This document shows, piece by piece, positions 12,704-42,485 of a stretch of DNA of 64,000 bases. How positions within the stretch are numbered: position 1 is the first letter of the stretch; every line of letters begins with the position of its first letter. The position numbers and the translations under genes are program-made. The notes below the pieces were generated by a model. The model made no database searches, had not been told where the DNA came from, and was given only the letters and a program-made list of their open reading frames with translations. Source of the DNA: Candidatus Gastranaerophilales bacterium (lineage in GTDB: Bacteria > Cyanobacteriota > Vampirovibrionia > Gastranaerophilales > Gastranaerophilaceae); the NCBI GenBank assembly GCA_944322885.1, contig CALUQH010000024.1, positions 1 through 64,000 of the forward strand. The letters run 5' to 3'.

Positions 12704-14182
12704 TTATATTTCGGAAATAATTTCTACTTGGGCGTTACATCCGATTTCTTCCCGTGAAAGAACCGTTATGTTATTCATATAATTGCTTAAAAGAGTAAAA
12801 ATCAGGTGTCTAAATTCTAACGGTACAAGTAATTTGGGGTTTTCTATATTTAATTTATTTATTTTTTTGTTTAATTTATCTGCAAGCTTTTCTGCAAAAT
12901 CCGCATCAATTCTGATTATTGCATCATCACTTTCATCAAAATCCGGTGTGAATTTTTCCAGAGTGGCATCAGATATTTCAAACGCACTTATTACACCTTC
13001 GGAATTTTGATTGTTTTTGCAAATTTGGCGTGAAAGCGACAACCTTAACTTTTTAATCAAGTCAGATTTTGTACTGTCAGCAGCAAAGTCATTTATTTTT
13101 TCAAAAATAGATGTAATATCTTTTATAGATATTTTTTCTCTTACCAAACTTGTTAACACAAATCTCAAATCAGATAATGATAAAAAATCGGGTATTATAT
13201 TTGTTACAAGATATTCATTATTGTTATTTACAACATTAATATATTTATCGAGTTCTTCATAATCAAGAAGGTCATCTACATATTTCACAGCGCAGAATTC
13301 AAGAGCACGTGCTATGTATTCTGCACTTGATATTCCTTCTTGCCAGAAATCTTTTGTTTTATTTTTTTCTATCCATATCACTTTGCGTCCTGTTATTTTG
13401 TCAATATCGTTAACAGAATCTTTAAATTTTTTCTCAAGATGTAATTCATCAGCATTGAACATTAAAAAACCGGGATAAACACAGGCTTTAAACACTTCAA
13501 GACCGTGAATTTTAATGCTAAACTCGTATGGATTAAGGTTTTCATCATCTTTAAAAACAATTTTTGGGATAACAAAACCTAAAGTTTCAGTAAGTTTAAG
13601 GCGTGATTTTACTGTTTCCGAAATAAGTTCTTCTTCAAGTATTTCACGGTTAGGTTCTGCATAGCCTAAAATTTCTTCACTTAGAAGAATTGATAATTTT
13701 TCTTCTTTAAGCATTGAATACATTGCATTTGGAGAAGTTGCATTTGCAAGTTTCAACTTTAATTCGTCTAATTCTTTAAGTCCCGCTGATATTTTATCAT
13801 TAAGCTTTTTTCTATTGACAGATGCAGGAGCTTCCCGTTCAAGTTCATCTTTTATTTTTGATATTTTAGTCTTTTGTTCACGAATTTTTTCTTGAATTTC
13901 AAGGCAAATCTCATAAGGGGACTGTGCAGGAGAGAGCATTTTTTCCATCTGGCTTTTAAAGGTAGAGATATTTATTACGTCAGCATTTGTTTCAACTGTC
14001 CCATATTCGGCTTCTTTCATAAAAATGCAGTGGCAGAGAACCTGACCGTCCTCATTTTCAACTTCTTGCATGCTGTAAAGCTCCCAGTTGTTCATGGACA
14101 TTTCGTTTAACAAATTTTGGAGCTCCTGGGTATTTTCGCTTGAACAGGTTTTTATAACATACTGCATTTTTTTATTAAACAT
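12704..14182 (-). CDS. Soluble FlhA/FHIPEP cytoplasmic-domain protein lacking the membrane domain
   Basis: A 492-residue soluble protein. Residues ~6-55 look like a small alpha/beta domain of the DUF4177 kind (NNWELYSMQEV). Residues ~85-150 are a predicted coiled coil. From ~165 to the end it follows the FlhA/YscV C-terminal domain: LGFVIPKIVFKDDENLNP, YEFSIKIHGLEVFKACVYPG, IPDFLSLSDLRFVLTSLVRE, KISIKDITSIFEKINDFA, LRLSLSRQIC and LLVPLEFRHLIFTLLSNYM. In flagella and type III secretion this domain forms the nonameric ring that docks chaperone-substrate complexes. The usual N-terminal eight-helix export gate is absent. The gene lies 9 nt after udp, inside the bamA cluster. A FliI/YscN-type ATPase is encoded at 26.5 kb. 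Confidence 0.78.
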   Translation of the reverse strand: MFNKKMQYVIKTCSSENTQELQNLLNEMSMNNWELYSMQEVENEDGQVLCHCIFMKEAEYGTVETNADVINISTFKSQMEKMLSPAQSPYEICLEIQEKIREQKTKISKIKDELEREAPASVNRKKLNDKISAGLKELDELKLKLANATSPNAMYSMLKEEKLSILLSEEILGYAEPNREILEEELISETVKSRLKLTETLGFVIPKIVFKDDENLNPYEFSIKIHGLEVFKACVYPGFLMFNADELHLEKKFKDSVNDIDKITGRKVIWIEKNKTKDFWQEGISSAEYIARALEFCAVKYVDDLLDYEELDKYINVVNNNNEYLVTNIIPDFLSLSDLRFVLTSLVREKISIKDITSIFEKINDFAADSTKSDLIKKLRLSLSRQICKNNQNSEGVISAFEISDATLEKFTPDFDESDDAIIRIDADFAEKLADKLNKKINKLNIENPKLLVPLEFRHLIFTLLSNYMNNITVLSREEIGCNAQVEIISEI

Positions 14183-14191
14183 AATTTCTCC

Positions 14192-14956
14192 TTAGTTTGT
14201 TGAAATAAGTATTTTTAAGGCTTCTACAGCTGTTTTAATAGCTTTATCAGTATCGTGGACAACGGGATTTTCAAGATTTTGTTTTTCTCTTTCCTGATTT
14301 GCAACTGTTAAAAATACAGAGCCCACTTTTACTTTCAAAAGGCTTCCTACTATAAACAGGGCGGCTGACTCCATTTCTGATGCAAGACAGCCAAGTCTTT
14401 TCCAGGCTTCCCATTTATTCAAAAGTTCATAGCTCACAGGCATTCTTTCGGGATTATGCTGCCCGTAAAATGAATCTTTACATTGAACGATTCCTGTATG
14501 GTACTCATAACCGAGATTTTTTGCGGACTGTACAAGTGCATTGATTATATCGAGGTTTGCAACGGCGGGGAATTCTATAGGTGCATATTCTTTTGTAGTG
14601 CCTTCCATTCTTATGGCACCCGTTGCAATGACAATATCTCCCCCTTTAACGTTAATATCCATACCTCCGCAGGTTCCAACCCGTATAAATGTTTTGGCTC
14701 CGACATTTACAAGCTCTTCCAATGCTATTGCAGCAGAGGGGCCGCCTATACCGGTTGAAGTTACGCTTACCTTAACGCCGTTTAAAAAACCGGTATAGGT
14801 TGTAAATTCTCTCCTGTCAGCAACCAATTTTGCATCATCAAAATATGCTGCAATTTTTTCACATCTTTTCGGATCACCGGGTAAAATGACGTATTCTCCT
14901 ATATCGCCCTTATTTAGCCCGATGTGATACTGTTCGCCGTGTTCTGAATAGTGCAT
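14192..14956 (-). CDS. udp: Uridine phosphorylase family nucleoside phosphorylase
   Basis: A 254-residue member of the nucleoside phosphorylase superfamily. It cleaves a nucleoside with phosphate to base plus ribose-1-phosphate. Landmarks are [13 protein letters not shown] (phosphate site), [37 protein letters not shown] and SEMESAALF. The last two fit uridine phosphorylase more than PNP, but substrate range cannot be fixed from sequence alone. Length is typical. It sits between ompH (16 nt) and the FlhA-like gene (9 nt) on the minus strand, so is probably co-transcribed with them. Confidence 0.85.
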
Positions 14957-14972
14957 TTTAGCTCCTTAAAAA

Positions 14973-15431
14973 TTAAAATTGACCGCTTTTTAATTTTTGT
15001 ATTACTAAATCAGATATATCTACACCGCCTACAAAAATTACTCTGTAGTCAACTATTGCGTCAAGTTTTTGCTGTACTAGCACTTCTTTAGTTGCTGCTT
15101 GAATTTTATTATAAACTTGTTCTTCTTTTTGCGCTTTTAACTTCATATAATTATCTTGTTTTAGTTTAAATTCTCGGGCTGTTTGTTCTTCAAAATTTTG
15201 TTTCTTTAAAGGTGTATCTAAAGATTTGTATTGCTTTTCTTTATCAACCATGTATTGCTGCATTTCAAGAGCTTTTGCGTCAATTTCTTTTATTGCCTGT
15301 TGCGCAAAAGGAAAGTTATCCTGAACTTTTTGGTAATCAATATATCCTATACCTGCTGCATTTGCCTGGCTGCCTAATGATAGGAATAATCCTGCCGTCA
15401 TTAAAAGTGCTGCTAATTTAAATTTTTTCAT
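14973..15431 (-). CDS. ompH: OmpH/Skp-family periplasmic chaperone
   Basis: A 152-residue exported protein. It has a signal peptide (KLAALLMTAGLFLSLGSQANAA), then IGYIDYQKVQDNFP, which is the conserved beta-strand start of the Skp/OmpH trimer. A long charged coiled coil (~residues 45-125) forms the tentacles, and the C-terminal segment DYRVIFVGGVDISDLVI closes the body. Skp holds unfolded outer-membrane proteins on their way to BamA, and the gene directly follows bamA (32 nt), the classic arrangement. Confidence 0.88.
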   Translation of the reverse strand: MKKFKLAALLMTAGLFLSLGSQANAAGIGYIDYQKVQDNFPFAQQAIKEIDAKALEMQQYMVDKEKQYKSLDTPLKKQNFEEQTAREFKLKQDNYMKLKAQKEEQVYNKIQAATKEVLVQQKLDAIVDYRVIFVGGVDISDLVIQKLKSGQF

Positions 15432-15463
15432 TTAATACCTCCTAAGTATTTTTTATTATTATA

Positions 15464-17419
15464 TTAGTACATTATATCGCCTACACCAAAAGTAAAGTAA
15501 CCGCCTCTGTTCCCGTTATCACCCGGATTTGTAAGCGGAATACCATAATCTATAGATAGCGGGCCCATTCCCGGAATATACAATTTTAAACCAATACCGG
15601 CAGATACCGCATACAAAGGTCTGTCATATATTTGATCTGTAACTGACGGGTTAAAGATTTTACCGGCATCAGCCCATACAGTAAATCTCAGGTTGTTTAA
15701 GAAGTTAATGCGGGTTCTATCCAAAAACGGTATTGGAGTTGCAAATTCGGCACTACCCATGATGAATGCATCACCGGTACCGACACCGCTCATTTTGAAA
15801 CCTCTTATAGTATACGGACCGCCCAGTCTGTATGCCATTACTTCAGGCATATTGTCGCCGTGAATTTTTCCGCCGCCTTTTGCGGTGAATGATAATGATG
15901 ATTTTTTCCCGACAGGAATGTATTGTTTTACCATACCTGTCAGTTTACCGTGTGTTTTGTCAAAATCAATAATGCCGATTTCTTCATCAAATCTGATACT
16001 TGCCATTGTCCCTTTTCTGGTAACGGTTGCATTATCACGGGTATCATACAATAATGCGGGACTTAATGACAGGAAGAAACCGCCTTCCAGTTGTTTGGCG
16101 CGTTCTGAAATAGGTATGTTGTATCGTGAATACAGACTGCTGATTTTATTGCCGTCACCTTCTGATACATCAATATTTTCTATGCCAAGTGAAAAAGTAG
16201 ATGTTACATGCTTGTTGCTTTTCATTCTGTGTGCAACTGTTGCTTCCGCACCTATTCTTCTTTCAATTGCAAGCGGTACCTGATAGCTGCCGAAATCTCT
16301 GTAGAAGATTTTGCTCATTAATGAAGTATCTGCATTGTAGAAGTATGGTTTGAAATAGCTCAATTCAGCCTGAAGATTCATTCTTCTTTTAATAGATGCA
16401 TCATTTAAAATTACACCTGTACCAACTATACCGTTTAAAGATAATCTTTCATTTCTGCCGAGGAAATTGTTATCCGCAATTCCAACAGATCCGAATACAC
16501 CTGTAACGGAGTCGATACCACCACCGATAGACACGCTTGCGGTTCTTTGTTCTTCAACATTAATAGTTATGTCATATTTATCGGGTTCTTCTGTCGGCTC
16601 AATTTCTCTTGTGACATCTTTGAATGCCTGAGTTGCATATAATCTTACAAGATCCTCTTTTAAAAGATTTTCATTGTATATCATACCGGGTTCGGTCAGT
16701 ATGTTTCTTTCAATGACATAATCTTTTGTTTTTTCGTTTCCGGATATCATGATTTTATTGACGGTGCCTTCTTTAATGCTTATATTTACGGTACCGTCTG
16801 GGTCATCAGTTACGGAGTCAATTCTTGCAAGGATGTAACCTTTAGAACTGTAGCAGTCCTGAATTTTTGCTATAGCTTCATTAAGCTGGGCAATATTTTG
16901 GGGTTTGCCTTTCATCGGCATAAGGTACGTAAGTATTTCATCGGTAGAGATAACAGTATTACCCTCAATTGTAAAATCTGTTATAGGGGCATTCTCTTCT
17001 AGGATAATTTTTAAGGTAACGGTGCCGTCATGGTTATTGACGGGGATAGCTTTCATTGTTTCAGTGAAATACCCCAGCTGGTAAATTGCCTTTAAATCTT
17101 GCTGAATAGCATCTCTGCTGTATACGGAACCTTTTTGAAGCTGCATTTGTTGAAGTATTAAGGATGTTTCAATAACATTGTTACCTAGGATTTCAATATC
17201 TTTAACGGTTTTTGACCCTTTAGGATTTTTAGTTTTTGAGGCAGAAGATTCAAGTTCGGGAGTATCTGAAGTTTGGACAGCAGAAGGAGTTTGGAGTTCA
17301 GGCGTTCCAGAATCCATTGTATCTCCCCAAAAATTTCCTTCGGCTACGCTCTGCAAAGGACACAGTATAACCAATAGCAGGGCTATTAAAGATATATATA
17401 TTTTGTTTAGTAAATTCAA
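15464..17419 (-). CDS. bamA: Outer-membrane assembly factor BamA/Omp85 with three POTRA domains
   Basis: A 651-residue Omp85 protein that inserts beta-barrel proteins into the outer membrane. It has a signal peptide (~1-27), a Pro/Ser/Thr-rich linker, then three POTRA domains starting near KDIEILGNNVIE (~70), ITDFTIEGNTVIS (~150) and VNKIMISGNEKTK (~225). The surface-antigen barrel runs from ~295, with the family GGPYTIRGFKMSGVG (VRGF-type lid-lock motif) and the closing strand GMGPLSIDYGIPL. Three rather than five POTRA domains is the cyanobacterial pattern. The start is a TTG supported by the signal peptide. It leads the minus-strand cluster bamA-ompH-udp-FlhA-like-malQ. Confidence 0.93.
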   Translation of the reverse strand: MNLLNKIYISLIALLLVILCPLQSVAEGNFWGDTMDSGTPELQTPSAVQTSDTPELESSASKTKNPKGSKTVKDIEILGNNVIETSLILQQMQLQKGSVYSRDAIQQDLKAIYQLGYFTETMKAIPVNNHDGTVTLKIILEENAPITDFTIEGNTVISTDEILTYLMPMKGKPQNIAQLNEAIAKIQDCYSSKGYILARIDSVTDDPDGTVNISIKEGTVNKIMISGNEKTKDYVIERNILTEPGMIYNENLLKEDLVRLYATQAFKDVTREIEPTEEPDKYDITINVEEQRTASVSIGGGIDSVTGVFGSVGIADNNFLGRNERLSLNGIVGTGVILNDASIKRRMNLQAELSYFKPYFYNADTSLMSKIFYRDFGSYQVPLAIERRIGAEATVAHRMKSNKHVTSTFSLGIENIDVSEGDGNKISSLYSRYNIPISERAKQLEGGFFLSLSPALLYDTRDNATVTRKGTMASIRFDEEIGIIDFDKTHGKLTGMVKQYIPVGKKSSLSFTAKGGGKIHGDNMPEVMAYRLGGPYTIRGFKMSGVGTGDAFIMGSAEFATPIPFLDRTRINFLNNLRFTVWADAGKIFNPSVTDQIYDRPLYAVSAGIGLKLYIPGMGPLSIDYGIPLTNPGDNGNRGGYFTFGVGDIMY

Positions 17420-26525: not shown

Positions 26526-27872
26526 ATGGAAGGTTTGGATACAAGCAGGCTTGATGAGCTTAAAAACAGGGTTAAAAATAAGCTTGATGAAACAGAATTG
26601 TTTACCTATAAAGGCAGTGTTTCAAAACTTTTGGGTTTGACTGTAGAAGTTAAATTGCCAGGACTCAAAGTTGGAGATTTATGTTATATAGAAACTAAAG
26701 ACGGACGTAAAAAACCTGCGGAAGTTCAAGCTTTTAAAGGTGAAGCTGCTCAATTACTTTTGCTTTATGACGGAGAAGGTATTGGACAGGGCAGTCTTGT
26801 TACATCTACGGGAAAGCCTATTATTATTCCTGTTGGCGACTTCCTTTTGGGAAGGCTTATTAATCCTATGGGAGAACCGATTGACGGAAAACCTCTTGAT
26901 ACGACTGGAGCAATGTGGCGCGCTGTTGAAGGACCTCCGCCGGGGCCTTTTGAAAGACCTATTATTACGGAAGTGTTTTCAACAGGCGTAAGAGCAATTG
27001 ACAGCTGTATGACTATGGGCTGCGGTCAGCGTTTAGGTTTGTTTGCAGGTTCAGGTGTCGGTAAAAGTACGCTTCTGGGGATGATTGCGAGAAATTCAGA
27101 TGCCGATGTAAACGTTGTTGCATTAATCGGAGAACGCGGTCGTGAAGTTAAAGAATTTGTAGAAGATGCACTTGGCGAGCAAGGTATGGCCAAATCTGTT
27201 CTGGTTTGTTCAACAGGAGATCAGCCGCCTCTTATTCGTCAAAAAGCTCTGCTTACAGCAACTGCTGTGTGTGAATATTTCAGAGATCAAGGGAAAAAGG
27301 TTTTCTTAATGACAGATACTGTCACACGTTGTGCTATGGCGGGCCGCGAGGTCGGTTTGTCACTCGGGGAACCGCCTACAATGAAAGGTTATCCCCCCTC
27401 TATTTTTTCATGGCTTCAAAAAGTTCTTGAACGTGCCGGAAATAGCCCTAAAGGTTCAATTACCGCTTTATATACTGTATTGATGGAAGGGGATGATATA
27501 TCTGATCCTATTGTAGATATTGTAAGAGGTATTGTAGACGGGCACATTTTCTTGTCAAGAAAGGTTGCTGAGATGAACCATTATCCTGCAATTGATGTTC
27601 TGGGCAGTATCTCAAGGCTTATGTCGTCTATTGTTACTCCGGAACACAGGGAAGCGGCAGGTAAGATGCGTGCAATTATGGCATTGTACAGAGAAAATAA
27701 GGATTTGATTGATGTAGGTATGTATCAGCCAGGAACAAATCCCAGACTTGATACCGCAATTGAGATGATGCCAAAAATTAATGCTTTTCTTCAGCAGAGA
27801 ACATCGGATATAGTAAGTATGGAAACTACTATAAGTACACTTGTTGATATGATGAAAGATGTTCAAATTTAA
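26526..27872 (+). CDS. FliI/YscN-type type III export ATPase
   Basis: A 448-residue member of the FliI/YscN/SctN family, which unfolds and feeds substrates to a flagellar or type III export gate. Landmarks are the Walker A LFAGSGVGKSTLLGMIA, LIGERGREVKEFVED, CSTGDQPPLIRQKA, the Walker B strand KVFLMTDTVTRCAMAGREVG, GEPPTMKGYPPSIFSWLQ and LSRKVAEMNHYPAIDVLGS. The last two separate it from F1/V1 ATPases. No fliH, fliJ or gate genes are adjacent; neighbours are a sugar-binding lipoprotein and a ZIP transporter. A partner FlhA-type domain is encoded 12 kb away. The promoter suggests a leaderless mRNA. Confidence 0.93.
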   Translation: MEGLDTSRLDELKNRVKNKLDETELFTYKGSVSKLLGLTVEVKLPGLKVGDLCYIETKDGRKKPAEVQAFKGEAAQLLLLYDGEGIGQGSLVTSTGKPIIIPVGDFLLGRLINPMGEPIDGKPLDTTGAMWRAVEGPPPGPFERPIITEVFSTGVRAIDSCMTMGCGQRLGLFAGSGVGKSTLLGMIARNSDADVNVVALIGERGREVKEFVEDALGEQGMAKSVLVCSTGDQPPLIRQKALLTATAVCEYFRDQGKKVFLMTDTVTRCAMAGREVGLSLGEPPTMKGYPPSIFSWLQKVLERAGNSPKGSITALYTVLMEGDDISDPIVDIVRGIVDGHIFLSRKVAEMNHYPAIDVLGSISRLMSSIVTPEHREAAGKMRAIMALYRENKDLIDVGMYQPGTNPRLDTAIEMMPKINAFLQQRTSDIVSMETTISTLVDMMKDVQI

Positions 27873-30531: not shown

Positions 30532-30786
30532 ATGATACTATCTCCAAGAGAAGAAAAAGTATTGTCTTTGGTCGCACTAGGGTATTCCGATAAACAAATA
30601 GCAGTAAAATTAGGCATATCATACGGAACAGTAAGAAATCATGTAGATAAGGCGGTTTTGAAATTGAATGCCCAGAACCGGACACATGCGGTGATGATTT
30701 ATAAGTTTATGAAAAAAGACTGGTTAGAGGAATTTTATGAAGCGAATAATAATACATTGGAGCGCGGGAGTATATTATCCGACTGA
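30532..30786 (+). CDS. Single-domain LuxR/GerE-type HTH regulator
   Basis: An 84-residue protein that is essentially one LuxR-type HTH: LSPREEKVLSLVALGYSDKQ, then IAVKLGISYGTVRNHVDKAVLKL. There is no receiver or autoinducer domain. It overlaps the start of the amidase gene by 50 nt, so the two are likely co-transcribed and co-evolved. It may control the lysis or particle genes. Such small LuxR-type proteins occur in phages of several phyla. Confidence 0.8.
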   Translation: MILSPREEKVLSLVALGYSDKQIAVKLGISYGTVRNHVDKAVLKLNAQNRTHAVMIYKFMKKDWLEEFYEANNNTLERGSILSD

Positions 30787-31228
30787 ATTTGAAAAAGAAC
30801 ATTATCATTTTTTGGTTGACAAAGACGGCAATGTTCATAATGGCAAATTTAAGCCTGAGGATAATGAATTTTGCAAAGTCGGAAAATATGCTGCACACAC
30901 AGGCGGCGGAAATACCGGAAGTATAGGAGTTGCATTGTGTGCAATGGCAGGATTTAAAAATAAAAATTCTGTTGGTAATTATCCGATTTTAAAAAAGCAG
31001 TTTGAAAGTGCAATGGAATTTTGTGCAAAGCTTTGCAGGAAGTACAAAATAGATGTTACACCGCAGACTGTAATGACACATTACGAGTTTGGAGTAAAAA
31101 ATCCAAAGACAACATCTGCCGGAAAAATTGATATTATATATCTCCCGTCTTATCCATGGGTTGCGCAGGAGGAAATAGGCAGTTTTATTCGTTCAAAAAT
31201 TAAATGGTATATGGTAAAGGGGGTATAA
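30737..31228 (+). CDS. N-acetylmuramoyl-L-alanine amidase (phage-type endolysin)
   Basis: A 163-residue single-domain amidase of the T7-lysozyme/PGRP fold. It cleaves the bond between MurNAc and L-Ala in peptidoglycan. Zinc ligands are likely His in IIHWSAG (~7), His in VMTHYEFGV (~117) and a distal Cys or Asp equivalent. AAHTGGGNTGSIGVALCAM is the conserved central strand. There is no signal peptide, as is usual for a holin-released endolysin. It is the first structural or lysis gene of the cluster and abuts the tail accessory gene. Confidence 0.85.
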   Translation: MKRIIIHWSAGVYYPTEFEKEHYHFLVDKDGNVHNGKFKPEDNEFCKVGKYAAHTGGGNTGSIGVALCAMAGFKNKNSVGNYPILKKQFESAMEFCAKLCRKYKIDVTPQTVMTHYEFGVKNPKTTSAGKIDIIYLPSYPWVAQEEIGSFIRSKIKWYMVKGV

Positions 31229-31232
31229 ACCT

Positions 31233-32741
31233 ATGGAAGTTTCTTACTATAATTTGGCCGGCGGAATAAATCAGTCGTTGACAAAGACAGAACTCGGGCT
31301 TGATACAAAAAAGATTTATTGGACAGATTCTGAGAATGTCGAAATATTTCAAAACAGGGGTATTATCAGACAGAATGGTAATTCTATATTTACAACGGTT
31401 GAAGAAGAAATTACGGGAATTGCCGAAATGTCTGCTTATGATAAGAGTAAGCTTGTTATAACAACGATTTCAGGGAAAATTTATATTTATAATGAAGTTA
31501 CAGCTGAAAAAATTCTTGTTGATAAAACTCTTACCGGAGTAAAGCCTGTATTTTTAAACTTTTTAAACGGCATACTTATAATGAGCGAGAGTGACGGGTT
31601 ATTTTACATTAAGAATAACAGCTCTTATGAAGTTGTAGACTGTAATTTAAAAGATCTGTCAGATAATGTTTTAACCGGCGGGGTCCTTGCAGTTTATAAA
31701 GGAAGAGTCTGGGTCGCAAAGGATGCAACAATTTATTACTCGGCTCTCGGTACATACAATGATTTTACAACTGAAAATGATGCAGGGTATATAAACGAAT
31801 TTCATACAGACACCGGTTCTATTACGGCCTTGAAAATGTATAAAGATTATCTTGCGATTTATAAAAAAGACAGTGTTTATCTATTGACAGGAACCAGCCC
31901 TGATGATTTTGCAATTACTCTGTTTGCAAATAAAGGAGCTGTGGCCCCTAAAGCTATAGCAAATGTTGAAAATAAACAATACTTTTTGAGCAACGGAATT
32001 TTTGCTCTTGAACAGGTTGGAGAACTAAACCAAATTCAGCTGGGGAACGAAATATCTTTGAAAATCAAAGAAGAATTTTCGTCTTTCGGAAAACTTGAAA
32101 ATACAATTTGTCTTCATTATGAAGCGAAAAGTCAGATGTGGTATTTCTTCCCTTATGCTGATGATGATTATTTTCATACGATATGGATAAATGACTATGT
32201 TAATAAGGCCTGGTACAAGCGTGTTGTGCCGCAAAATATTGTAACTGCCTGTATTTATGACGGAAATGTTTATACGGCAGACAGTTCAGGAAATATTTAC
32301 AGAGAAGATTTTGGGACAACTTTTAACGGTCAGGTTATTAAATTTATGTGGAAATCGCCGTTTCTTGCAATTACAAATGCTCACCACAGAAAAATGATAG
32401 ATGAGTTTTATTTTCTGCTTGATACAGAAAATGATAATGATTTTAATTTTTCTGTATATAAAGATTATGATAGTGAAATAGCCGATGATCCGGAAAGAAT
32501 TTATTCTGTACATCCGGAACATTTGATATGGGCGGATGAAACAACATCAGAAAGTCTTCCATGCCACTGGGCTAAAGATGATGAAAGTTATCCGGTTTGG
32601 CCGGTAAACAAAGATACTATGGAAAAAGCCGAGATATCTGAGTCAAACTACTCAATACAGCTTTGTGTATCAGGGGAAAATTCCGGTCAGTCATGCGCTA
32701 TTATAGGTCTTCAATTCAGAGAAATTTATAATGATGACTAA
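31233..32741 (+). CDS. Podovirus-type tail accessory/stabilisation protein (P22 gp10-like)
   Basis: A 502-residue protein, all-beta in appearance. It has an N-terminal GGINQSLTKTELGLDTK and repeated blade-like segments (GKIYIYNEVT; LAIYKKDSVYLLTGTSPD; KQYFLSNGIFALEQVGE). Position, length (P22 gp10 is ~470) and the opening segment fit the head-completion/tail-needle hub of P22-like podoviruses. I could not check this by structure, so the name is an inference. It starts 4 nt after the amidase stop. Confidence 0.6.
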   Translation: MEVSYYNLAGGINQSLTKTELGLDTKKIYWTDSENVEIFQNRGIIRQNGNSIFTTVEEEITGIAEMSAYDKSKLVITTISGKIYIYNEVTAEKILVDKTLTGVKPVFLNFLNGILIMSESDGLFYIKNNSSYEVVDCNLKDLSDNVLTGGVLAVYKGRVWVAKDATIYYSALGTYNDFTTENDAGYINEFHTDTGSITALKMYKDYLAIYKKDSVYLLTGTSPDDFAITLFANKGAVAPKAIANVENKQYFLSNGIFALEQVGELNQIQLGNEISLKIKEEFSSFGKLENTICLHYEAKSQMWYFFPYADDDYFHTIWINDYVNKAWYKRVVPQNIVTACIYDGNVYTADSSGNIYREDFGTTFNGQVIKFMWKSPFLAITNAHHRKMIDEFYFLLDTENDNDFNFSVYKDYDSEIADDPERIYSVHPEHLIWADETTSESLPCHWAKDDESYPVWPVNKDTMEKAEISESNYSIQLCVSGENSGQSCAIIGLQFREIYNDD

Positions 32742-32804
32742 TTATTTTTGAATATTTGCACTACTCATATTTATACTAGTTTAACAAAAGAAAGGAAACA
32801 AAAA

Positions 32805-33674
32805 ATGGCACAAGAATCTTCAACAAATGCTTATTCCGCATTTATTCCGGAAATTTGGAGCCAAAAATTAAACAACATGCTTACAAAAGAGTGTGTTATG
32901 CTCCAATGTGTTAACAGAAACTGGGAAGGCGAGATTAAAAATCAGGGCGATAAAGTAAAAATTATTCAGCCTGCTGACGTAACTATTTCGACTCTTGGAA
33001 CTGATACGCTTGAATATAAGGAATTAGCACCTACTTCTTTAGATTTGGTAATTGATCAGAAAAAATTCTTTGCATTTAAAATTAATGATGTTGCTCAGGT
33101 TCAGGCAAACACTGATATTATGGAAGCTCATCTTAGAAATGCTAAAAAAGCTATTGAAGAAGTGCAGGATGCTTATCTGCTTTCATTGCATTCAAATGTT
33201 ACGACCGCAAATACTGTAGGCTCTGAATCTTCAGCAGTTTCTCTTGACAAGACTACAATTTACTCAAAATTTGTAGAACTCGCCTTGTGTTTGAAAAATT
33301 CAGATGCCGTAACTGCAGGTACAAGACCATGGGTTGTTATTAACCCGACTATTGAATCTTATCTCCTTCAAAGTTCTGAATTTATCGGTGCACACAATGT
33401 TGCTGATGAAACTTTGAGAGAAGGTGCAATAGGAAGAATTGCCGGCATGGATGTTCTTGTAAGTACAAATTTAACTGATGTTTCAGGGAAATACTACGTT
33501 CTTGCAGGTACAAACGAAGCTATCACTTTTGCATCTCAGCTCGCTAAAATTGAAAGCTTAAGAGATCAAAGCAGCTTCTCTGATCTGGTAAGAGGCTTAT
33601 ATTTATACGGAGCAAAAGTTGTCCAGCCGAATGCATTAGCTAAAATGATAGTTACTGCTCCAACAGGTGATTAA
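32805..33674 (+). CDS. Major capsid protein (HK97-fold, P22/coat-like)
   Basis: A 289-residue coat protein. The N-terminus (TNAYSAFIPEIWSQKLNNML) and the axial-domain segment RPWVVINPTIESYLL are typical, as are GRIAGMDVLVSTNL and the closing GLYLYGAKVVQPNALAKM. The ATG at 32805 is chosen because AAAGGAAAC precedes it; an upstream frame from 32748 lacks support. No delta-domain scaffold or protease is fused. A hairpin follows, so capsid mRNA may be stabilised or segmented. Confidence 0.85.
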   Translation: MAQESSTNAYSAFIPEIWSQKLNNMLTKECVMLQCVNRNWEGEIKNQGDKVKIIQPADVTISTLGTDTLEYKELAPTSLDLVIDQKKFFAFKINDVAQVQANTDIMEAHLRNAKKAIEEVQDAYLLSLHSNVTTANTVGSESSAVSLDKTTIYSKFVELALCLKNSDAVTAGTRPWVVINPTIESYLLQSSEFIGAHNVADETLREGAIGRIAGMDVLVSTNLTDVSGKYYVLAGTNEAITFASQLAKIESLRDQSSFSDLVRGLYLYGAKVVQPNALAKMIVTAPTGD

Positions 33675-33701
33675 TAACAACTGATTGCTTCTTATACCCC
33701 G

Positions 33702-33735
33702 AATGCATCTTCGATAATTTTTTCGGAGATGCATT
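33702..33735 (+). terminator. Hairpin after the capsid gene
   Basis: AATGCATCTTCGA pairs with TCGGAGATGCATT (13 bp with one G-U). There is no T-run after it, so it may be an mRNA-stabilising or processing stem rather than a full stop. Confidence 0.5.
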
Positions 33736-33756
33736 ATTAAAAAAATGAGGTAAATT

Positions 33757-33993
33757 ATGTTTAGTAAATTAAAGGAAACTATTAAGGAGCTTGCAAAAAC
33801 TGCTGTCGTAAAGGCTGAAGAAACTCTCGGAAGCCAAAAAGGACAGGAGAAAAAAGATATGGCAATAAATTATATAGTTAGTCATATTCCTGTGTTCGCT
33901 CCTTTAAAACCGCTGATTTCAATGCTTTTATCATCTTTTATTGATGATGCGGTTGAATTTGCAGTGGAATATATGAAAAGTGAGGTACTATGA
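33757..33993 (+). CDS. Small holin-like protein
   Basis: A 78-residue protein with an amphipathic Lys/Ala N-terminal helix, a KGQEKKDMA hinge and a moderately hydrophobic C-terminal half (IVSHIPVFAPLKPLISMLLS). The layout recalls the short LL-H-type phage holins, which carry a similar KGxEKK segment. One membrane segment at most is visible, so the call is tentative. It overlaps the next gene by 4 nt (ATGA). Amidase and holin would be split by the tail and capsid genes. Confidence 0.4.
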   Translation: MFSKLKETIKELAKTAVVKAEETLGSQKGQEKKDMAINYIVSHIPVFAPLKPLISMLLSSFIDDAVEFAVEYMKSEVL

Positions 33994-34640
33994 ATCCGAC
34001 AAATATAGAAAATCTTTCATCCTACGCCGGTAATCAAACTGCGGCGGGCGGAAATCAGCCGTTGAATAATGATTTACAATCAATAAAACAAACGGTTTTA
34101 AAAGACATTCAGGTTATTGAAAATCTTGTACAAACAGGAGCCATGACGCAAGAACAAGGACAAAATTTAATGAATTATGTTACTAAAAAGGCGTTTGAAA
34201 AGTATACATTAAGTCAACAGAACAGTCAGAACCCTGTTAATATGATGCAACAAGCTCCTTCTGTAGCTCAAAATGTTCCGGCAGCTGATGTCGTTCCGGA
34301 ATTTTTTAACAGAGATGGAAGGCTTGACGTTTTTGATTACCTGAAAAATTCAAATGCTGCATTTGATCAGGATGAACTCTCTAAGATATCAGCTCTGGTG
34401 GAAAAAATTGAAAATACCGCTATTGAAAGATACTTGAGAGAAAAAAATCACGAAAAAACATTAAACAGCGAAAACGAGGCCGCTAAGCAAAAACTTCGTG
34501 CTTATGCACAAAATTCTGCTTATGACGGTAATAAGAATCTGGTTTTTACCCGTGAACAAATCGGCAAAATGAGTGGTGCAGAATTTGCTAAATACGAACG
34601 TATGATTATGGATCAGTTAAGGAAAGGTCTTATAAAATAG
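33990..34640 (+). CDS. Putative scaffolding-type protein
   Basis: A 216-residue, highly charged, Gln/Asn-rich helical protein. Low-complexity stretches lie near residues 1-30 and 75-100, and the C-terminus is basic (MDQLRKGLIK), as in P22-type scaffolds whose basic end binds coat protein. It has no Cys and no membrane segment. Direct linkage to capsid and holin-like genes supports the guess. It could also be a portal-proximal accessory protein. Confidence 0.4.
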   Translation: MNPTNIENLSSYAGNQTAAGGNQPLNNDLQSIKQTVLKDIQVIENLVQTGAMTQEQGQNLMNYVTKKAFEKYTLSQQNSQNPVNMMQQAPSVAQNVPAADVVPEFFNRDGRLDVFDYLKNSNAAFDQDELSKISALVEKIENTAIERYLREKNHEKTLNSENEAAKQKLRAYAQNSAYDGNKNLVFTREQIGKMSGAEFAKYERMIMDQLRKGLIK

Positions 34641-34664
34641 CAAAATTCAAAAAACTTTTAAGGG

Positions 34665-34694
34665 AAAACAGTCTTTTTTAAGGCTGTTTTTTCT
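34665..34694 (+). terminator. Terminator after the scaffold-like gene
   Basis: AAAACAGTC pairs with GGCTGTTTT (one G-U) across a T-rich loop, then TTCTT. Confidence 0.65.
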
Positions 34695-34716
34695 TAAAAG
34701 CAATGAAAGGAAATTT

Positions 34717-35355
34717 ATGAACTATTTGGAACTTATTAATAAATGTCTTGTGGAATTAAATTATAAACAGGTTAATGCTTTTTCGGAATTAACAAAAAAT
34801 GACCATAAAAAGTTAAAAAATATTTTAAATATTGTCAACACTGATGTGTGCGGTTTTGACAGATGGAATTTTTTAATGAGAAAGAAAACAATAACTTTAC
34901 CGGCCCAAACCGGAGAAATTGATAATACGGTAGAGGGACGAATAGAAGCAGTAATTGCAGACGGAGTGAAATTTGACTATTATCAGGACTTTGAAACATT
35001 CTTTGTTAATACTCAGCCTCAAAATACGTATAGTTTATTTAATGATAAGATTTTGTTTCCTGTTTTTAATAGGGACAAAACTATAGAAATTTTATATTAT
35101 ACAAAAAATTGTGCAGTAAATTCACAGGGTTTGGAAAAATTACAGATGGAAGAAGAGGAAGACTCCTCTTTAATTCCGGAGCCTTATGTTGAACCTATAC
35201 TTGTTTACGGAGCTTGTATGAAGCTGAAAGGCAATCCGGAACATGTTCGTTTTAGTTACTGGTACAGCATGTACAAAGAGGCTCTTGCAAATTTGCGCTC
35301 AAGAGTTTCCCCAAGCATTGATGACACTCCGTCTGTAAGATTATTCAGAAGGTAG
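34717..35355 (+). CDS. Head-tail adaptor protein (P22 gp4-like)
   Basis: A 212-residue protein. The N-terminal helices (YLELINKCLVELNYKQVNAF) and the DRWNFLMRKKTITLPAQ strand, then KILFPVFNR and EPILVYGACMKLKG, follow the head-completion adaptor family that lines the portal exit in podoviruses. Length is near that of P22 gp4 (~166) and the T7-type adaptor (~195). AAAGGAAA precedes the ATG. A 334-bp gap without a plus-strand gene follows. Confidence 0.55.
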   Translation: MNYLELINKCLVELNYKQVNAFSELTKNDHKKLKNILNIVNTDVCGFDRWNFLMRKKTITLPAQTGEIDNTVEGRIEAVIADGVKFDYYQDFETFFVNTQPQNTYSLFNDKILFPVFNRDKTIEILYYTKNCAVNSQGLEKLQMEEEEDSSLIPEPYVEPILVYGACMKLKGNPEHVRFSYWYSMYKEALANLRSRVSPSIDDTPSVRLFRR

Positions 35356-35528
35356 CAAAGCGGCTGCGTGTAGCATTGCCGTTCGCGATAAACGGTACCG
35401 CTCACAACAACACCGAAAACTCAACGTTTCCGTTGATTGTTGTTCGTCTTTCGCTATGCTCATACCTCTGCTCATTTTCAGCCATGTATAACGGGTTTAT
35501 GTAAGACTTAATGTGGCTACATGCGTAG
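35356..35528. other. Gap with hairpin-forming sequence, no supported gene
   Basis: No coding frame is convincing. The segment holds nested inverted repeats (CAACG TTTC CGTTG near 35418-35432; CCGTT / AACGG near 35384-35398). A 28-codon minus-strand frame exists but has no Shine-Dalgarno. It could be structural or packaging-related. Confidence 0.4.
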
Positions 35529-35602
35529 CATAAAAAAAACAGGAAGTTTAAAATTCATTTTCCCCTCCTGTTAAGATTTACACTAGCCGAAATATAAATA
35601 GC
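35529..35602 (-). ncRNA. Short minus-strand RNA inside the phage-like cluster
   Basis: On the minus strand a promoter (35609-35637) is followed ~7 nt later by a ~75-nt stretch. It ends in a hairpin, AACAGGA / TCCTGTT (35542-35572) with an inner AAAAT / ATTTT, and then eight T. An AGGAGG and a 13-codon ORF (ATG 35558, stop at 35517) overlap the hairpin, so a tiny peptide is possible but the ribosome site would be partly folded. It is antisense to nothing known and lies just upstream of terS. Confidence 0.5.
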
Positions 35603-35608
35603 ATGTTT

Positions 35609-35637
35609 ATTATACAATTTTTTTTCAAAAAATACAA
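35609..35637 (-). promoter_or_regulatory. Minus-strand promoter of the short RNA
   Basis: On the minus strand TTGTAT (35632-35637), a 17-bp spacer and TATAAT (35609-35614). No gene other than the short RNA lies downstream on that strand. Confidence 0.55.
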
Positions 35638-35689
35638 ATTATACTAAGATTTGTAACGAAAGTACATAATTAAACAAATTTATAAACCA

Positions 35690-36124
35690 ATGAAAAAATT
35701 AACAAACCAGCAGAAAAAATTTGTTTTGGAATATATAAAATCCCTTAACGGCGAACTTTCAGCCCAAAAGGCAGGATATAAATCAAAAGACTTAAAAACA
35801 ATTGCATCTGAACTTTTATCAAAAGATTCTATCATACACGAAATTAAATCTCAGTTGAAGAAGCAGATAGCTTCTTTGAGAGTGAATAAAGGTTATGTTA
35901 TTCAAAAACTTCTCCAGATAGCTGAATTTTCTCTTGAGGAAGAAGATATTCTTGATAAAGAGGGATGCATTACCGGAAAAAAGAAACTTAGAGATACATC
36001 CGCAGGCTTAAAAGCGCTGGAAAGTCTTTGCAAATATCTGGGATTTACGTCAAATCAGGGTGAGGAAGAATATAAGCAGGCAAAAATTATTACAATTTCT
36101 AATCTTGATGACAGCAAAATTTAG
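35690..36124 (+). CDS. Terminase small subunit
   Basis: A 144-residue protein. The N-terminal HTH-like DNA-binding region is LTNQQKKFVLEYIKSLNG, then AQKAGYKSKD and LLSKDSIIHEI, the classic layout of phage terminase small subunits (Terminase_2 type). The central helices (GYVIQKLLQIAEFSLEEED) form the oligomerisation part. It recognises the packaging site and works with TerL. TerL lies 2.7 kb downstream, split from it by two unrelated genes and the portal, which is unusual. No Shine-Dalgarno is obvious. Confidence 0.82.
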   Translation: MKKLTNQQKKFVLEYIKSLNGELSAQKAGYKSKDLKTIASELLSKDSIIHEIKSQLKKQIASLRVNKGYVIQKLLQIAEFSLEEEDILDKEGCITGKKKLRDTSAGLKALESLCKYLGFTSNQGEEEYKQAKIITISNLDDSKI

Positions 36125-36142
36125 TTAAAAGGAGATTTTTTT

Positions 36143-36493
36143 ATGAAGAATAATAATGCGGAAGAAATGCTTTTAAACAATACATCTTTGGATGAACTCA
36201 TTAAAATGCGGATAGAAAAAGAATTTATGGATGATTTGAAAAAATCGAAAGAAAAGCCTGAAAAGAAAGAATACACAAATATAAAAGATTTACCGAAAGA
36301 TAAGATTTTTTCAAAATATTCAGTATTTCGCTGTTTCAACAGAAATACAAAATGTGAAACTTTCATAAACGGAATTCAGGCAGATGCACTTATCGGTATT
36401 CAGGATACGGTGAGAAAAAATATGCTTGAGGGGAAATTAAGTGCATTTACAACTGATGATTCTTATATAAAGTTTGAGAAGGCTGTATTTTAA
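36143..36493 (+). CDS. Charged small protein, unknown
   Basis: A 116-residue protein that I do not recognise. The N-terminal half is acidic and Lys-rich and likely helical (DELIKMRIEKEFMDDLKK). The second half has FSKYSVFRCFNRNTKCETFI and may be a small folded domain. AAAAGGAG precedes the ATG. It overlaps the GNAT gene by one base (TAATG), so it is translationally coupled to it and probably its functional partner. Confidence 0.5.
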   Translation: MKNNNAEEMLLNNTSLDELIKMRIEKEFMDDLKKSKEKPEKKEYTNIKDLPKDKIFSKYSVFRCFNRNTKCETFINGIQADALIGIQDTVRKNMLEGKLSAFTTDDSYIKFEKAVF

Positions 36494-36993
36494 TGACTAA
36501 ATTTATATCACCTTTTGCAAAACCTGCGTATTTTGAGCAGGCTTTATTTTTGTACTCGAAATATTGCGGTTTTATGGATGATGACTATGCTTTGAACGGC
36601 AGGTCGCTTTTTGAATATTTTTATAATCTTATTTTAAGAACTCAGCCGTTTTTCTTTGTCATTGCAGAAGACGACATTGTCAGCGGGTTGGTATATCTGG
36701 ACAATATAACGGGTGACAGCGAGAGACTTCACAGTGCAGAGGTTACAACCTGTTTTGATAAACGCTTTTGGGGTGATTACACAAAATATTGTGCAAAGTT
36801 ATTTTTTGAATACTGTTTTAAAAAATACAATTTCGTAAAAATAAAAGCACTTGTTTATCCTGAGAATTTTCGTGTAAAAACTCTTTTAAAGGCTGCAGGT
36901 TTTGAGAGGGAAGCGCTGCTGAAAAATGAAACATTAAGAAAAGGAAAATTACAGGATATAGAGGTATATTCGGTTTTTAATAATTATTGCTGA
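36493..36993 (+). CDS. GNAT-family acetyltransferase in the phage-like cluster
   Basis: A 166-residue GNAT protein. The strand and helix order is visible in FFFVIAEDDIVSGLVYLDNI, AEVTTCFDKRFWGDYTKY, then VKIKALVYPENFRVKTLLKAAGFEREALLKN. The last segment is the standard end of RimJ/RimL-like GNATs. Its acceptor is unknown. Acetyltransferases of this kind are often found near terminase genes in phages. It is coupled to the gene before it. Confidence 0.75.
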   Translation: MTKFISPFAKPAYFEQALFLYSKYCGFMDDDYALNGRSLFEYFYNLILRTQPFFFVIAEDDIVSGLVYLDNITGDSERLHSAEVTTCFDKRFWGDYTKYCAKLFFEYCFKKYNFVKIKALVYPENFRVKTLLKAAGFEREALLKNETLRKGKLQDIEVYSVFNNYC

Positions 36994-37004
36994 AAATATC
37001 ATAG

Positions 37005-37097
37005 GTCTGATGAATATCGACGGAAAGGATAAAAGAGGAGGTGTAACCTCTGGCATGAATATTAAAAGTCTGATGAATATTGACGGAAAGGATAAAA
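37005..37097 (+). repeat. 63-nt tandem duplication before the portal gene
   Basis: A 30-nt unit at 37005-37034 recurs at 37068-37097 with one mismatch, a 63-nt period. Each copy carries GGAAAGGATAAAA, so the portal's ribosome-binding region is duplicated. Between them is a GAGGT-GTA-ACCTC palindrome (37037-37049). Confidence 0.75.
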
Positions 37098-37100
37098 AGA

Positions 37101-38765: not shown

Positions 38766-38790
38766 TGCCGCAAAAGCGGCACTTTTATTT
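38764..38790 (+). terminator. Terminator between portal and terL
   Basis: AGTGCCGC / GCGGCACT, an 8-bp stem with an AAAA loop and a following TTTTATTT. It starts at the portal stop codon. Confidence 0.85.
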
Positions 38791-38800
38791 AGATGGCAAA

Positions 38801-40790: not shown

Positions 40791-42485
40791 ATGGGATTGG
40801 CAGCTTCACAAGCAAGATTTTTGGCCATAACTTCACGGAAGATGAACTGTGAATTTCAGTCCATGCAAATTGCACAGGACAAACTTTCAGTTACCCGTGA
40901 CCTGCAATCTGCTGCTACCAAATACCAGAATTCAATGAATGCAACAAAACTTGTCTGGGATACTGATACTGATGAAGTTTATGATTTGTCTTATGATTTA
41001 TTAATGACCCCTTCAGCCTTGAATGATTATAACCCGTATTTGATTACGGATGCACAGGGCAAAATTGTTCTTAGTGATACTATGTTTGCGGCAGCTCTGG
41101 AGGCCGGTATTATTAATGAAAAAGGTGACCCGACCGGTAAGGCAATGTACACACAATCCGGTATTGAAATCGGCGGGGAAAAAGTCACTGCAGGTTCCCG
41201 TGATGCATTTATAGATGCACTTGTCAGCAATGGTGAACTTGCAGCAACAACTGCAGATTCTGTTAAGTCTCATGATTATACCAAATCAGGAATCGGTGGA
41301 GAAATTCTTGACAAAACAATTGCAAACGCCTTGACAATAACAGCTTTAATACAGGAATTATCTGGAACATATGAAGAAGATGATGAGAGTGGTCATAAAG
41401 AAGGTGAATTAAAATACAGCTTTGCAGAGGCATTAGGGATAGATTTAAGTGATTCTAGTACTGCGGATAAAAAAATGGATGATATGTTCTGTTATACTAC
41501 TTCTCCTAATACTTCAGAACAGAATGAGGATGGGGATTATATAATTTCAAATAATGGAACCGCATTAACCAGAGACGAAATAAAAAATCTGTCTATCGGT
41601 GATTTGCTGTCCGGTAAATATTCTATAACAAAAGTAGGCGCAGATGATTTCGATGTAAAAGCTGAGATATTAGAAAAACTTGCTACTGCTCTTGGGTATG
41701 ATGGAGGCGATAAAATTACCGGTATAGGGATAAATGTTGATGACCAATCGGCTAGTGCTCTTAGTTCTGCACTAAGTTTTACAAACCAGCATTATCTTGA
41801 TAATGCGGAAACTGTCAGCGGCGGTAGTACAGCCCAGAAAATTGCAAATCTAATTAACAAATCACCTGATTATAACGGTGTTATTCATTCAGATGTCGGG
41901 GAATCTGTAAGTTTAACGAACCTGTTGAAAACATATTTGACTTATTTTGCGATAGCTCTTGACGGAGCTGAAAGTACTTTATTTAGTATTGAAGATAAAA
42001 CATCAGAAAGTCAATATGTTACAGATGATTATAATTACTATTTCCTTATAAGCGACAGTGAAGCTGTTACTGAAACGGACTTATTAACTACAGATTTTTA
42101 TAACCAGTTGTATAACCAGATATGTACGAACGGTGCCACCACAGATGCAATCAAAAGAGATATGGTGCAAGATCCGGAGTATTTGATGCAGGCCTTGAAA
42201 AACGGTCAGTTATTTATTTCCAGCTTAAATACAGACGGATATTTCTATCAGGGACATTATACATTAAACGGCTACGTTGCCGAGGTTACTGATGAAGCAG
42301 CAATTGCACAGGCTGAAATGGAGTACGAAATTACAAAAACCAAGTTGAATTATAAAGAAGAAACACTTGATTTGAAAATGAAAAATATAGATACTGAATT
42401 ATCGGCGTTAACAACCGAATATGATACGGTTAAAAACCTTATCAGTAAAAACGTCGAAAAAGTATTTACAATGTTTAGTACTTAG
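40791..42485 (+). CDS. Large flagellin-like / type III-like filament candidate
   Basis: A 564-residue protein that does not match a named family for me. The N-terminal ~60 residues are helical and resemble export and polymerisation segments of flagellin-like proteins: MGLAASQARFLAITSRKMNC, then SVTRDLQSAATKYQNSMNA. The C-terminal ~70 residues are a coiled coil (EITKTKLNYKEETLDLKMKN; LSALTTEYDTVKNLISKN) ending KVFTMFST. The middle (~90-490) is variable and Ser/Thr/Asp/Gly-rich. Helical conserved ends around a variable centre are the plan of flagellin, hook-associated and EspA-like filaments. No signal peptide is present, which fits type III export. AGAAAGGA precedes the ATG. Confidence 0.5.
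   Translation: MGLAASQARFLAITSRKMNCEFQSMQIAQDKLSVTRDLQSAATKYQNSMNATKLVWDTDTDEVYDLSYDLLMTPSALNDYNPYLITDAQGKIVLSDTMFAAALEAGIINEKGDPTGKAMYTQSGIEIGGEKVTAGSRDAFIDALVSNGELAATTADSVKSHDYTKSGIGGEILDKTIANALTITALIQELSGTYEEDDESGHKEGELKYSFAEALGIDLSDSSTADKKMDDMFCYTTSPNTSEQNEDGDYIISNNGTALTRDEIKNLSIGDLLSGKYSITKVGADDFDVKAEILEKLATALGYDGGDKITGIGINVDDQSASALSSALSFTNQHYLDNAETVSGGSTAQKIANLINKSPDYNGVIHSDVGESVSLTNLLKTYLTYFAIALDGAESTLFSIEDKTSESQYVTDDYNYYFLISDSEAVTETDLLTTDFYNQLYNQICTNGATTDAIKRDMVQDPEYLMQALKNGQLFISSLNTDGYFYQGHYTLNGYVAEVTDEAAIAQAEMEYEITKTKLNYKEETLDLKMKNIDTELSALTTEYDTVKNLISKNVEKVFTMFST

What the first reader, a model, noticed from the sequence alone, without database searches (positions are those of the whole stretch)
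12704..14182. FlhA export-ring domain without its membrane gate, inside a bamA-ompH cluster
The protein matches FlhA/YscV C-terminal sequence over ~320 residues, but the export-gate helices are replaced by a small N-terminal domain and a coiled coil. A free substrate-docking ring is not a form I know. The neighbours are outer-membrane assembly genes, not flagellar genes.
Basis: partly seen in the sequence, partly recalled or inferred. Interest (0 to 1): 0.8.

Follow-up and report, generated by a model that had tools for sequence, protein, structure and literature searches.

The report
Stand-alone FlhA cytosolic-domain paralog
A gut bacterium that has no flagellum carries a free-floating copy of the 'landing ring' part of a protein-export gate, without the gate and without the site where cargo normally lands, and nearly all its relatives keep it beside a second, unstudied flagellum-like export machine.

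Summary
The 492-aa protein at 12704-14182(-) is a soluble FlhA-type cytosolic domain. It matches only the C-terminal half of the FlhA family (PF00771, 160 bits) and its model matches FlhA-C structures (Z 29.7). The eight-helix gate is replaced by a small beta-alpha-beta-beta domain and a coiled-coil hairpin. It is under strong purifying selection and was found in 45 of 47 Gastranaerophilales genomes checked, but in none of 48 genomes from other orders of the class.

(1) The genome lacks a flagellum (no flagellin, no FliG) but encodes a second, paralogous flagellum-type export system, present in every genome of the order examined. Its ATPase, FliI2, lies in this window. (2) 'Free substrate-docking ring' is unlikely: residues of the chaperone-docking dimple and Gly-368 are lost in the stand-alone family, while the D1-D3 interface and linker are kept. 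Other truncated FlhA2-type paralogs lack the docking subdomain D2 altogether.

Best explanation: a docking-dead FlhA2 paralog that joins or caps the FlhA2 export ring as a regulatory subunit. The mechanism is inferred, not shown. The bamA-ompH neighbourhood is only lineage-specific synteny.

The parts
12704..14182 (-). Stand-alone FlhA cytosolic-domain protein (SA), 492 aa
   Evidence: Pfam, NCBIfam, PDB sequence and structure matches; purifying selection
14012..14167 (-). N-terminal beta-alpha-beta-beta domain (residues 6-57), weakly DUF4177-like, the most conserved part of the protein
   Evidence: AF2 model of the domain alone, pLDDT about 90 over residues 11-40; DUF4177 at E 0.01-0.09 in nine of nine divergent members, below the Pfam cut-off
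13739..13918 (-). Antiparallel coiled-coil hairpin (residues 89-148) in place of the membrane domain; its second helix aligns with the FlhA2 linker helix
   Evidence: AF2 model; alignment
13703..13819 (-). FlhA2-type linker (about residues 122-160, LKELDELKLKLANATSPNAMYSML)
   Evidence: Alignment with FlhA2 linkers (LGQLENVRQNMQDLVNPNRMYERL); flagellar FlhA1 linkers differ
12707..13705 (-). FlhA cytosolic domain D1-D2-D3-D4 (residues 160-492)
   Evidence: subdomain mapping
26526..27872 (+). FliI2: type III export ATPase of the second system, the only T3SS_ATPase_C hit in this genome
   Evidence: PF18269 98 bits and PF00006 277 bits; genome search
40791..42485 (+). Candidate exported protein of the second system: conserved N-terminal (about 1-97) and C-terminal (about 453-563) ends, variable middle, many paralogs
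   Evidence: Search of 19 genomes; no Pfam family. Its role as a substrate is inferred
14192..17419 (-). Upstream genes in the same apparent operon in this lineage: phosphorylase (14192-14956), ompH (14973-15431), bamA (15464-17419). Context only, not part of the system

Best explanation
The protein is a soluble paralog of FlhA2, the export-gate protein of a second, non-flagellar flagellum-type export system of the order. Shown: the FlhA-C fold; loss of the gate; a linker of FlhA2 type; loss of the chaperone-docking residues together with retention of D1-D3 interface residues; near-universal presence in the order alongside the second system, including in genomes without a flagellum. Inferred: it works by joining or stacking on the nonameric FlhA2 ring through its linker, D1 and D3, as a docking-dead regulatory subunit. 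The N-terminal domain and coiled coil would then set when, or to which partner, the ring is opened. It would thereby help to control export of the order's expanded family of end-conserved secreted proteins.
For: Fold and C-terminal-only match. Purifying selection. Distribution: 45 of 47 order genomes, 0 of 48 from other orders of the class. Second system: FlhA2, FliP2 (12), FlhB2 (17), FliI2 (18), FliF2 (21), FliE, FliH, FliO, FliQ, FliM/N, FliK, FliJ and FlgE-like (31, 32); no flagellin (51) and no FliG (79) in this genome. Best BLAST relative is an FlhA2-type protein for 97 of 98 members, and the linker is of FlhA2 type. Docking residues lost, interface kept: F459 is T/S in 94 of 98, T490 is R/K in 72, H491 is A in 77, G368 is S in 97, while E547 is kept in 96 and K548 is R/K in 77; roles of these residues from PMC8166844 and PMC9431611. 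SA-FlhA2 identity is lowest in D2 (0.15) and D4 (0.18) and highest in D1a (0.34) and D3 (0.36). Other FlhA2-like paralogs keep linker, D1 and D3 but delete D2; one kind is fused to the system-2 operon protein X. In one genus the gene is directly upstream of fliJ-fliK-flgD-flgE on the same strand.
Against: No evidence of interaction with FlhA2 and no multimer model. The C-domain tree does not settle the sister group (AU test rejects none). Genome position is not conserved with system-2 genes. G135 (98% complete) has system 2 but no SA, and class relatives with an FlhA2-type protein lack it, so it is not essential to such systems. Because both SA and system 2 are near-universal in the order, co-occurrence within it says little. 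A changed docking site could mean altered specificity rather than loss.
Confidence: 0.42

Rival explanations
1. It is a cytosolic receptor or shuttle with a re-shaped docking site: it binds a different set of chaperones or substrates (for example the end-conserved protein family) and brings them to the FlhA2 ring.
For: All four subdomains including D2 are present and D456 is kept in 97 of 98. The substrate-like family is long and expanded in this order, where SA occurs, and has only short members in class relatives that lack SA.
Against: D2 is the least FlhA2-like part and the dimple residues are changed, T490 often to R or K. Sister truncated paralogs drop D2 completely.
Confidence: 0.22
2. 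It is a cytosolic competitor of the gate: it binds FliJ, FliH-FliI or the FlhA2 linker in the cytosol and keeps the export apparatus off until needed.
For: The linker and coiled coil sit where FlhA normally meets FliJ and neighbouring subunits (roles of the linker from PMC8166844). It is adjacent to fliJ in one genus.
Against: That adjacency is to the flagellar fliJ of a genome with both systems and occurs in one genus only.
Confidence: 0.16
3. It has left secretion: the FlhA-C fold serves as a scaffold for an unrelated cytosolic function, perhaps envelope-related given bamA-ompH.
For: It is encoded away from system-2 genes in most families; it shares an apparent operon with bamA-ompH in one family.
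Against: The neighbourhood changes from family to family. The retained linker and D1-D3 interface would not be needed.
Confidence: 0.17
4. It is a decaying duplicate or pseudogene-like copy of FlhA.
For: A full-length FlhA exists in the genome.
Against: Omega 0.03-0.06; order-wide conservation at full length; a distinct conserved N-terminal domain.
Confidence: 0.01

Closest known systems
Flagellar FlhA (TIGR01398, PF00771), cytosolic domain FlhA-C
   Same: Same fold over D1-D4 (7amy Z 29.7), FlhA-type linker, D1-D3 interface residues
   Different: No eight-helix export gate; a beta-alpha-beta-beta domain and coiled-coil hairpin instead; docking-dimple residues and Gly-368 lost
SctV/YscV/MxiA/InvA of injectisomes
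   Same: Same cytosolic fold (Z 22-28)
   Different: No membrane domain; sequence closer to FlhA
FlhA2 of the same genome (contig C15)
   Same: Closest relative by BLAST for most members, with a similar linker
   Different: FlhA2 is a full-length gate and keeps F/Y459, T490 (8 of 11), H491 and G368
DUF4177 (PF13783) small domain
   Same: Weak sequence similarity over residues 13-58; beta-alpha-beta-beta order in the model
   Different: Below the Pfam cut-off; no clear structural match for the domain

Membership tests
FlhA/SctV export-gate family (FHIPEP) as a functional gate | N-terminal eight-helix membrane domain | tested here: not met
   Profile match starts at position 321; no transmembrane-type segment in the window protein
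FlhA/SctV export-gate family (FHIPEP) as a functional gate | Four-subdomain cytosolic fold | tested here: met
   Z 29.7 over 332 residues to 7amy
FlhA/SctV export-gate family (FHIPEP) as a functional gate | Hydrophobic dimple that docks chaperones (D456, F459, T490) | tested here: not met
   D456 kept 97 of 98; F459 replaced in all, T490 R/K in 72 of 98. By residue identity only; no binding assay
FlhA/SctV export-gate family (FHIPEP) as a functional gate | GYXLI motif with Gly-368 | tested here: not met
   Serine in 97 of 98
FlhA/SctV export-gate family (FHIPEP) as a functional gate | Nonameric ring assembly | not testable with these tools
   Interface residues E547 and K548 largely kept, but no multimer modelling was available
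DUF4177 (N-terminal domain) | Score above the Pfam gathering cut-off | tested here: not met
   13-17 bits against a cut-off of 25 in nine members
Flagellum (for the second system) | Flagellin filament and FliG rotor protein | tested here: not met
   No PF00669 and no PF01706 match in the window's genome; both present in relatives that also carry FlhA1
Type III export apparatus (for the second system) | FlhA, FlhB, FliP, FliQ, FliR and the ATPase | tested here: met
   FliR by position and sequence in L088 and L093
Injectisome (for the second system) | Outer-membrane secretin | not tested
   No secretin search was made

The most novel reading that the evidence does not exclude
An order of gut cyanobacterial relatives runs a universal non-flagellar secretion machine derived from the flagellar exporter, and regulates it with soluble, docking-dead copies of the gate's own cytosolic domain that join its ring: a class of regulatory pseudo-subunits not described for type III export.
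Probability: 0.38. Interest if true: 0.82.

Novelty: new variant of a known kind. Interest (0 to 1): 0.66.

Why it matters
As far as I know, every studied FlhA/SctV couples gate and docking ring in one chain. A natural free ring domain that has lost docking but kept the ring-building surfaces would separate those functions and give a natural test of what the ring does. It also points to a second export system that earlier work counted as remnants of a flagellum: Soo et al. 2014 (PMC4040986) reported only a subset of flagellar genes in most Gastranaerophilales. Here each of FlhA, FliP, FlhB, FliI and FliF has two copies in relatives with a flagellum and one copy, of the second type, in those without.

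Tried and rejected
Pseudogene or truncated copy: rejected by omega 0.03-0.06 and order-wide conservation. Link to outer-membrane assembly: rejected as general, because the synteny is limited to one family. Component of the flagellum proper: rejected, because it is present in genomes with no flagellin and no FliG. Phage- or plasmid-borne gene: no relative of the N-terminal domain in viral contigs; the listed plasmid hits are only ordinary FlhA at about 25% identity. Tree placement of the C domain: unresolved, AU test keeps all three sister hypotheses. N-terminal domain fold: no Foldseek match below E 0.02, best VIA Z 6.0 (KCTD5 C-terminal domain), within the range of chance; no PDB sequence relative. 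Literature searches for a stand-alone FlhA cytosolic domain and for type III secretion in Melainabacteria or Vampirovibrionia gave no description; the library holds open-licence papers only.

Full report
What is there. The minus-strand ORF 12704-14182 encodes 492 aa with a good ribosome-binding site. It matches the FlhA family only in its C-terminal half: PF00771 positions 321-655, 160 bits. The nearest solved structures by sequence are FlhA cytosolic domains (3mix, E 2e-20). An AlphaFold model from 60 orthologs (pLDDT 79) matches FlhA and SctV cytosolic domains over residues 154-492 (7amy, Z 29.7, 332 aligned). The window protein has no transmembrane-type segment. Upstream of the FlhA part lie a beta-alpha-beta-beta domain (residues 6-57), an acidic spacer, and a coiled-coil hairpin (89-148). 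The N-terminal domain is weakly similar to DUF4177 in nine of nine divergent members but under the cut-off, so its family is not settled.

It is a real, conserved gene. 79 further loci were found in one scan, those with organism names being Gastranaerophilales, Melainabacteria or uncultured cyanobacteria, and an extended set of 98 members was used for residue counts. Omega is 0.03-0.06 across the whole gene. Counting the genomes examined once each, 45 of 47 genomes of the order have the full-length protein; G135 and G028 (83% complete) do not. None of 48 genomes from other orders of the class has it: there the profile matches only the C-terminal part of FlhA proteins, mostly at full FlhA length.

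A second export system. All 192 genomes of the order that were searched have FlhA-family matches. In the 24 read in detail they are of three main kinds: a roughly 860-890-bit FlhA (FlhA1), a roughly 690-730-bit FlhA (FlhA2), and the stand-alone protein. FliP, FlhB, FliI and FliF follow the same rule: two copies where FlhA1 is present, otherwise one, of the second type. The second set forms operons: fliE-fliF2-X-fliH-flhA2 (L094, L091), FliM/N-like-fliO-fliP2-fliQ-fliR (L093, L088), and fliJ-fliK-FlgE-like near flhB2 (L095, L089, L098). The window's genome has only the second set, no flagellin and no FliG; X sits where fliG would be. Its ATPase, FliI2, is in this window at 26526-27872. Earlier papers saw the incomplete flagellar gene sets and read them as loss of flagella (PMC4040986, PMC3787301). 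The two-copy pattern indicates a separate, retained machine. Its function is not known.

Candidate exported proteins. The 564-aa protein at 40791-42485 belongs to a family with conserved ends and variable middle. It gives 17 matches in this genome, some of them two pieces of one protein. It occurs in all 12 searched genomes with an FlhA2-type gate and in none of 7 class members without one; the hits in the three class outgroups are short proteins with weak scores (E 3e-5 to 1e-3). This is the architecture of axial or filament-type export substrates, but secretion is inferred only.

How the stand-alone protein relates to the gate. Its best BLAST relative is an FlhA2-type protein for 97 of 98 members and its linker resembles that of FlhA2, not FlhA1. 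The tree shows the family as monophyletic (support 100) but cannot place its sister. Residues were mapped on Salmonella FlhA through the profile alignment. F459 and T490 of the chaperone-docking dimple and G368 of the GYXLI motif (roles: PMC8166844, PMC9431611) are replaced: T/S in 94 of 98, R/K in 72, S in 97. FlhA2 has F/Y at 459 in 11 of 11, T490 in 8 of 11 and G368 in 11 of 11. By contrast E547 (96 of 98) and K548 as R/K (77 of 98), on the D1-D3 face, are kept. Identity to FlhA2 is 0.34 in D1a and 0.36 in D3, but 0.15 in D2 and 0.18 in D4.

An independent parallel. Some genera carry further FlhA2-like paralogs: 592-593-aa proteins in which the domain of operon protein X is joined to a membrane hairpin, an FlhA2-type linker and an FlhA-C lacking D2; and 285-296-aa proteins with linker, D1 and D3 only. 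Loss of the docking subdomain with retention of linker, D1 and D3 has therefore happened more than once, which favours a role in the ring rather than in docking. The fusion also ties protein X to FlhA-C.

Neighbourhood. In this family the gene follows bamA-ompH in an apparent operon, but the gene between ompH and SA changes, and in other families of the order SA stands in unrelated places. In genus g36 it is directly upstream, on the same strand, of the flagellar fliJ-fliK-flgD-flgE. The outer-membrane context is therefore not a clue to function.

Verdict. Observation confirmed; interpretation half right. The most likely role is a docking-dead accessory subunit of the FlhA2 ring of the second export system (0.42), with a re-specified receptor (0.22), a cytosolic competitor (0.16) and an unrelated function (0.17) as rivals. 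The protein architecture is a new variant of a known kind; the wider system deserves study in its own right.

Noticed in passing
Window 40791-42485(+) and paralogs: Multi-copy protein family with conserved N- and C-terminal ends and variable middle, no Pfam match, found in genomes with the FlhA2-type gate and not in seven class relatives without it; a candidate secreted family.
   Followed up: partly
L094:7294-8316(+); L091:6492-8025(+): Protein X in the position of fliG in the second-system operon, without a Pfam match; tandem copies in G013.
   Followed up: partly
L127:5042-6823(-); L128:4633-6411(+): Fusion of the X domain, a membrane hairpin and an FlhA-C lacking D2, encoded beside a conserved pair of response-regulator genes.
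   Followed up: partly
L129:4567-5424(+); L130:4146-5036(+): Short FlhA2-like proteins with linker, D1 and D3 only.
   Followed up: partly
L145:14408-16185(+) compared with L127:2737-4981(-): A similar pair of response-regulator genes lies about 4 kb downstream of SA in G012 and beside the X-FlhA-C fusion in G041 and G049.
   Followed up: no
Window 30737-40105: Stretch that by eye looks like a prophage: amidase, capsid-, portal- and terminase-like genes.
   Followed up: no
L091:1519-4413(+): In G013 the second system's operon is preceded by rod-type genes (FlgE/F/G-like, Flg_bb_rod) and a transglycosylase; these do not precede fliE in G018 (L094).
   Followed up: partly
G135 (L131-L134): 98% complete genome with second-system genes FlhA2, FliP2, FlhB2, FliI2 and FliF2 but no stand-alone protein; a natural knock-out for comparison.
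   Followed up: partly
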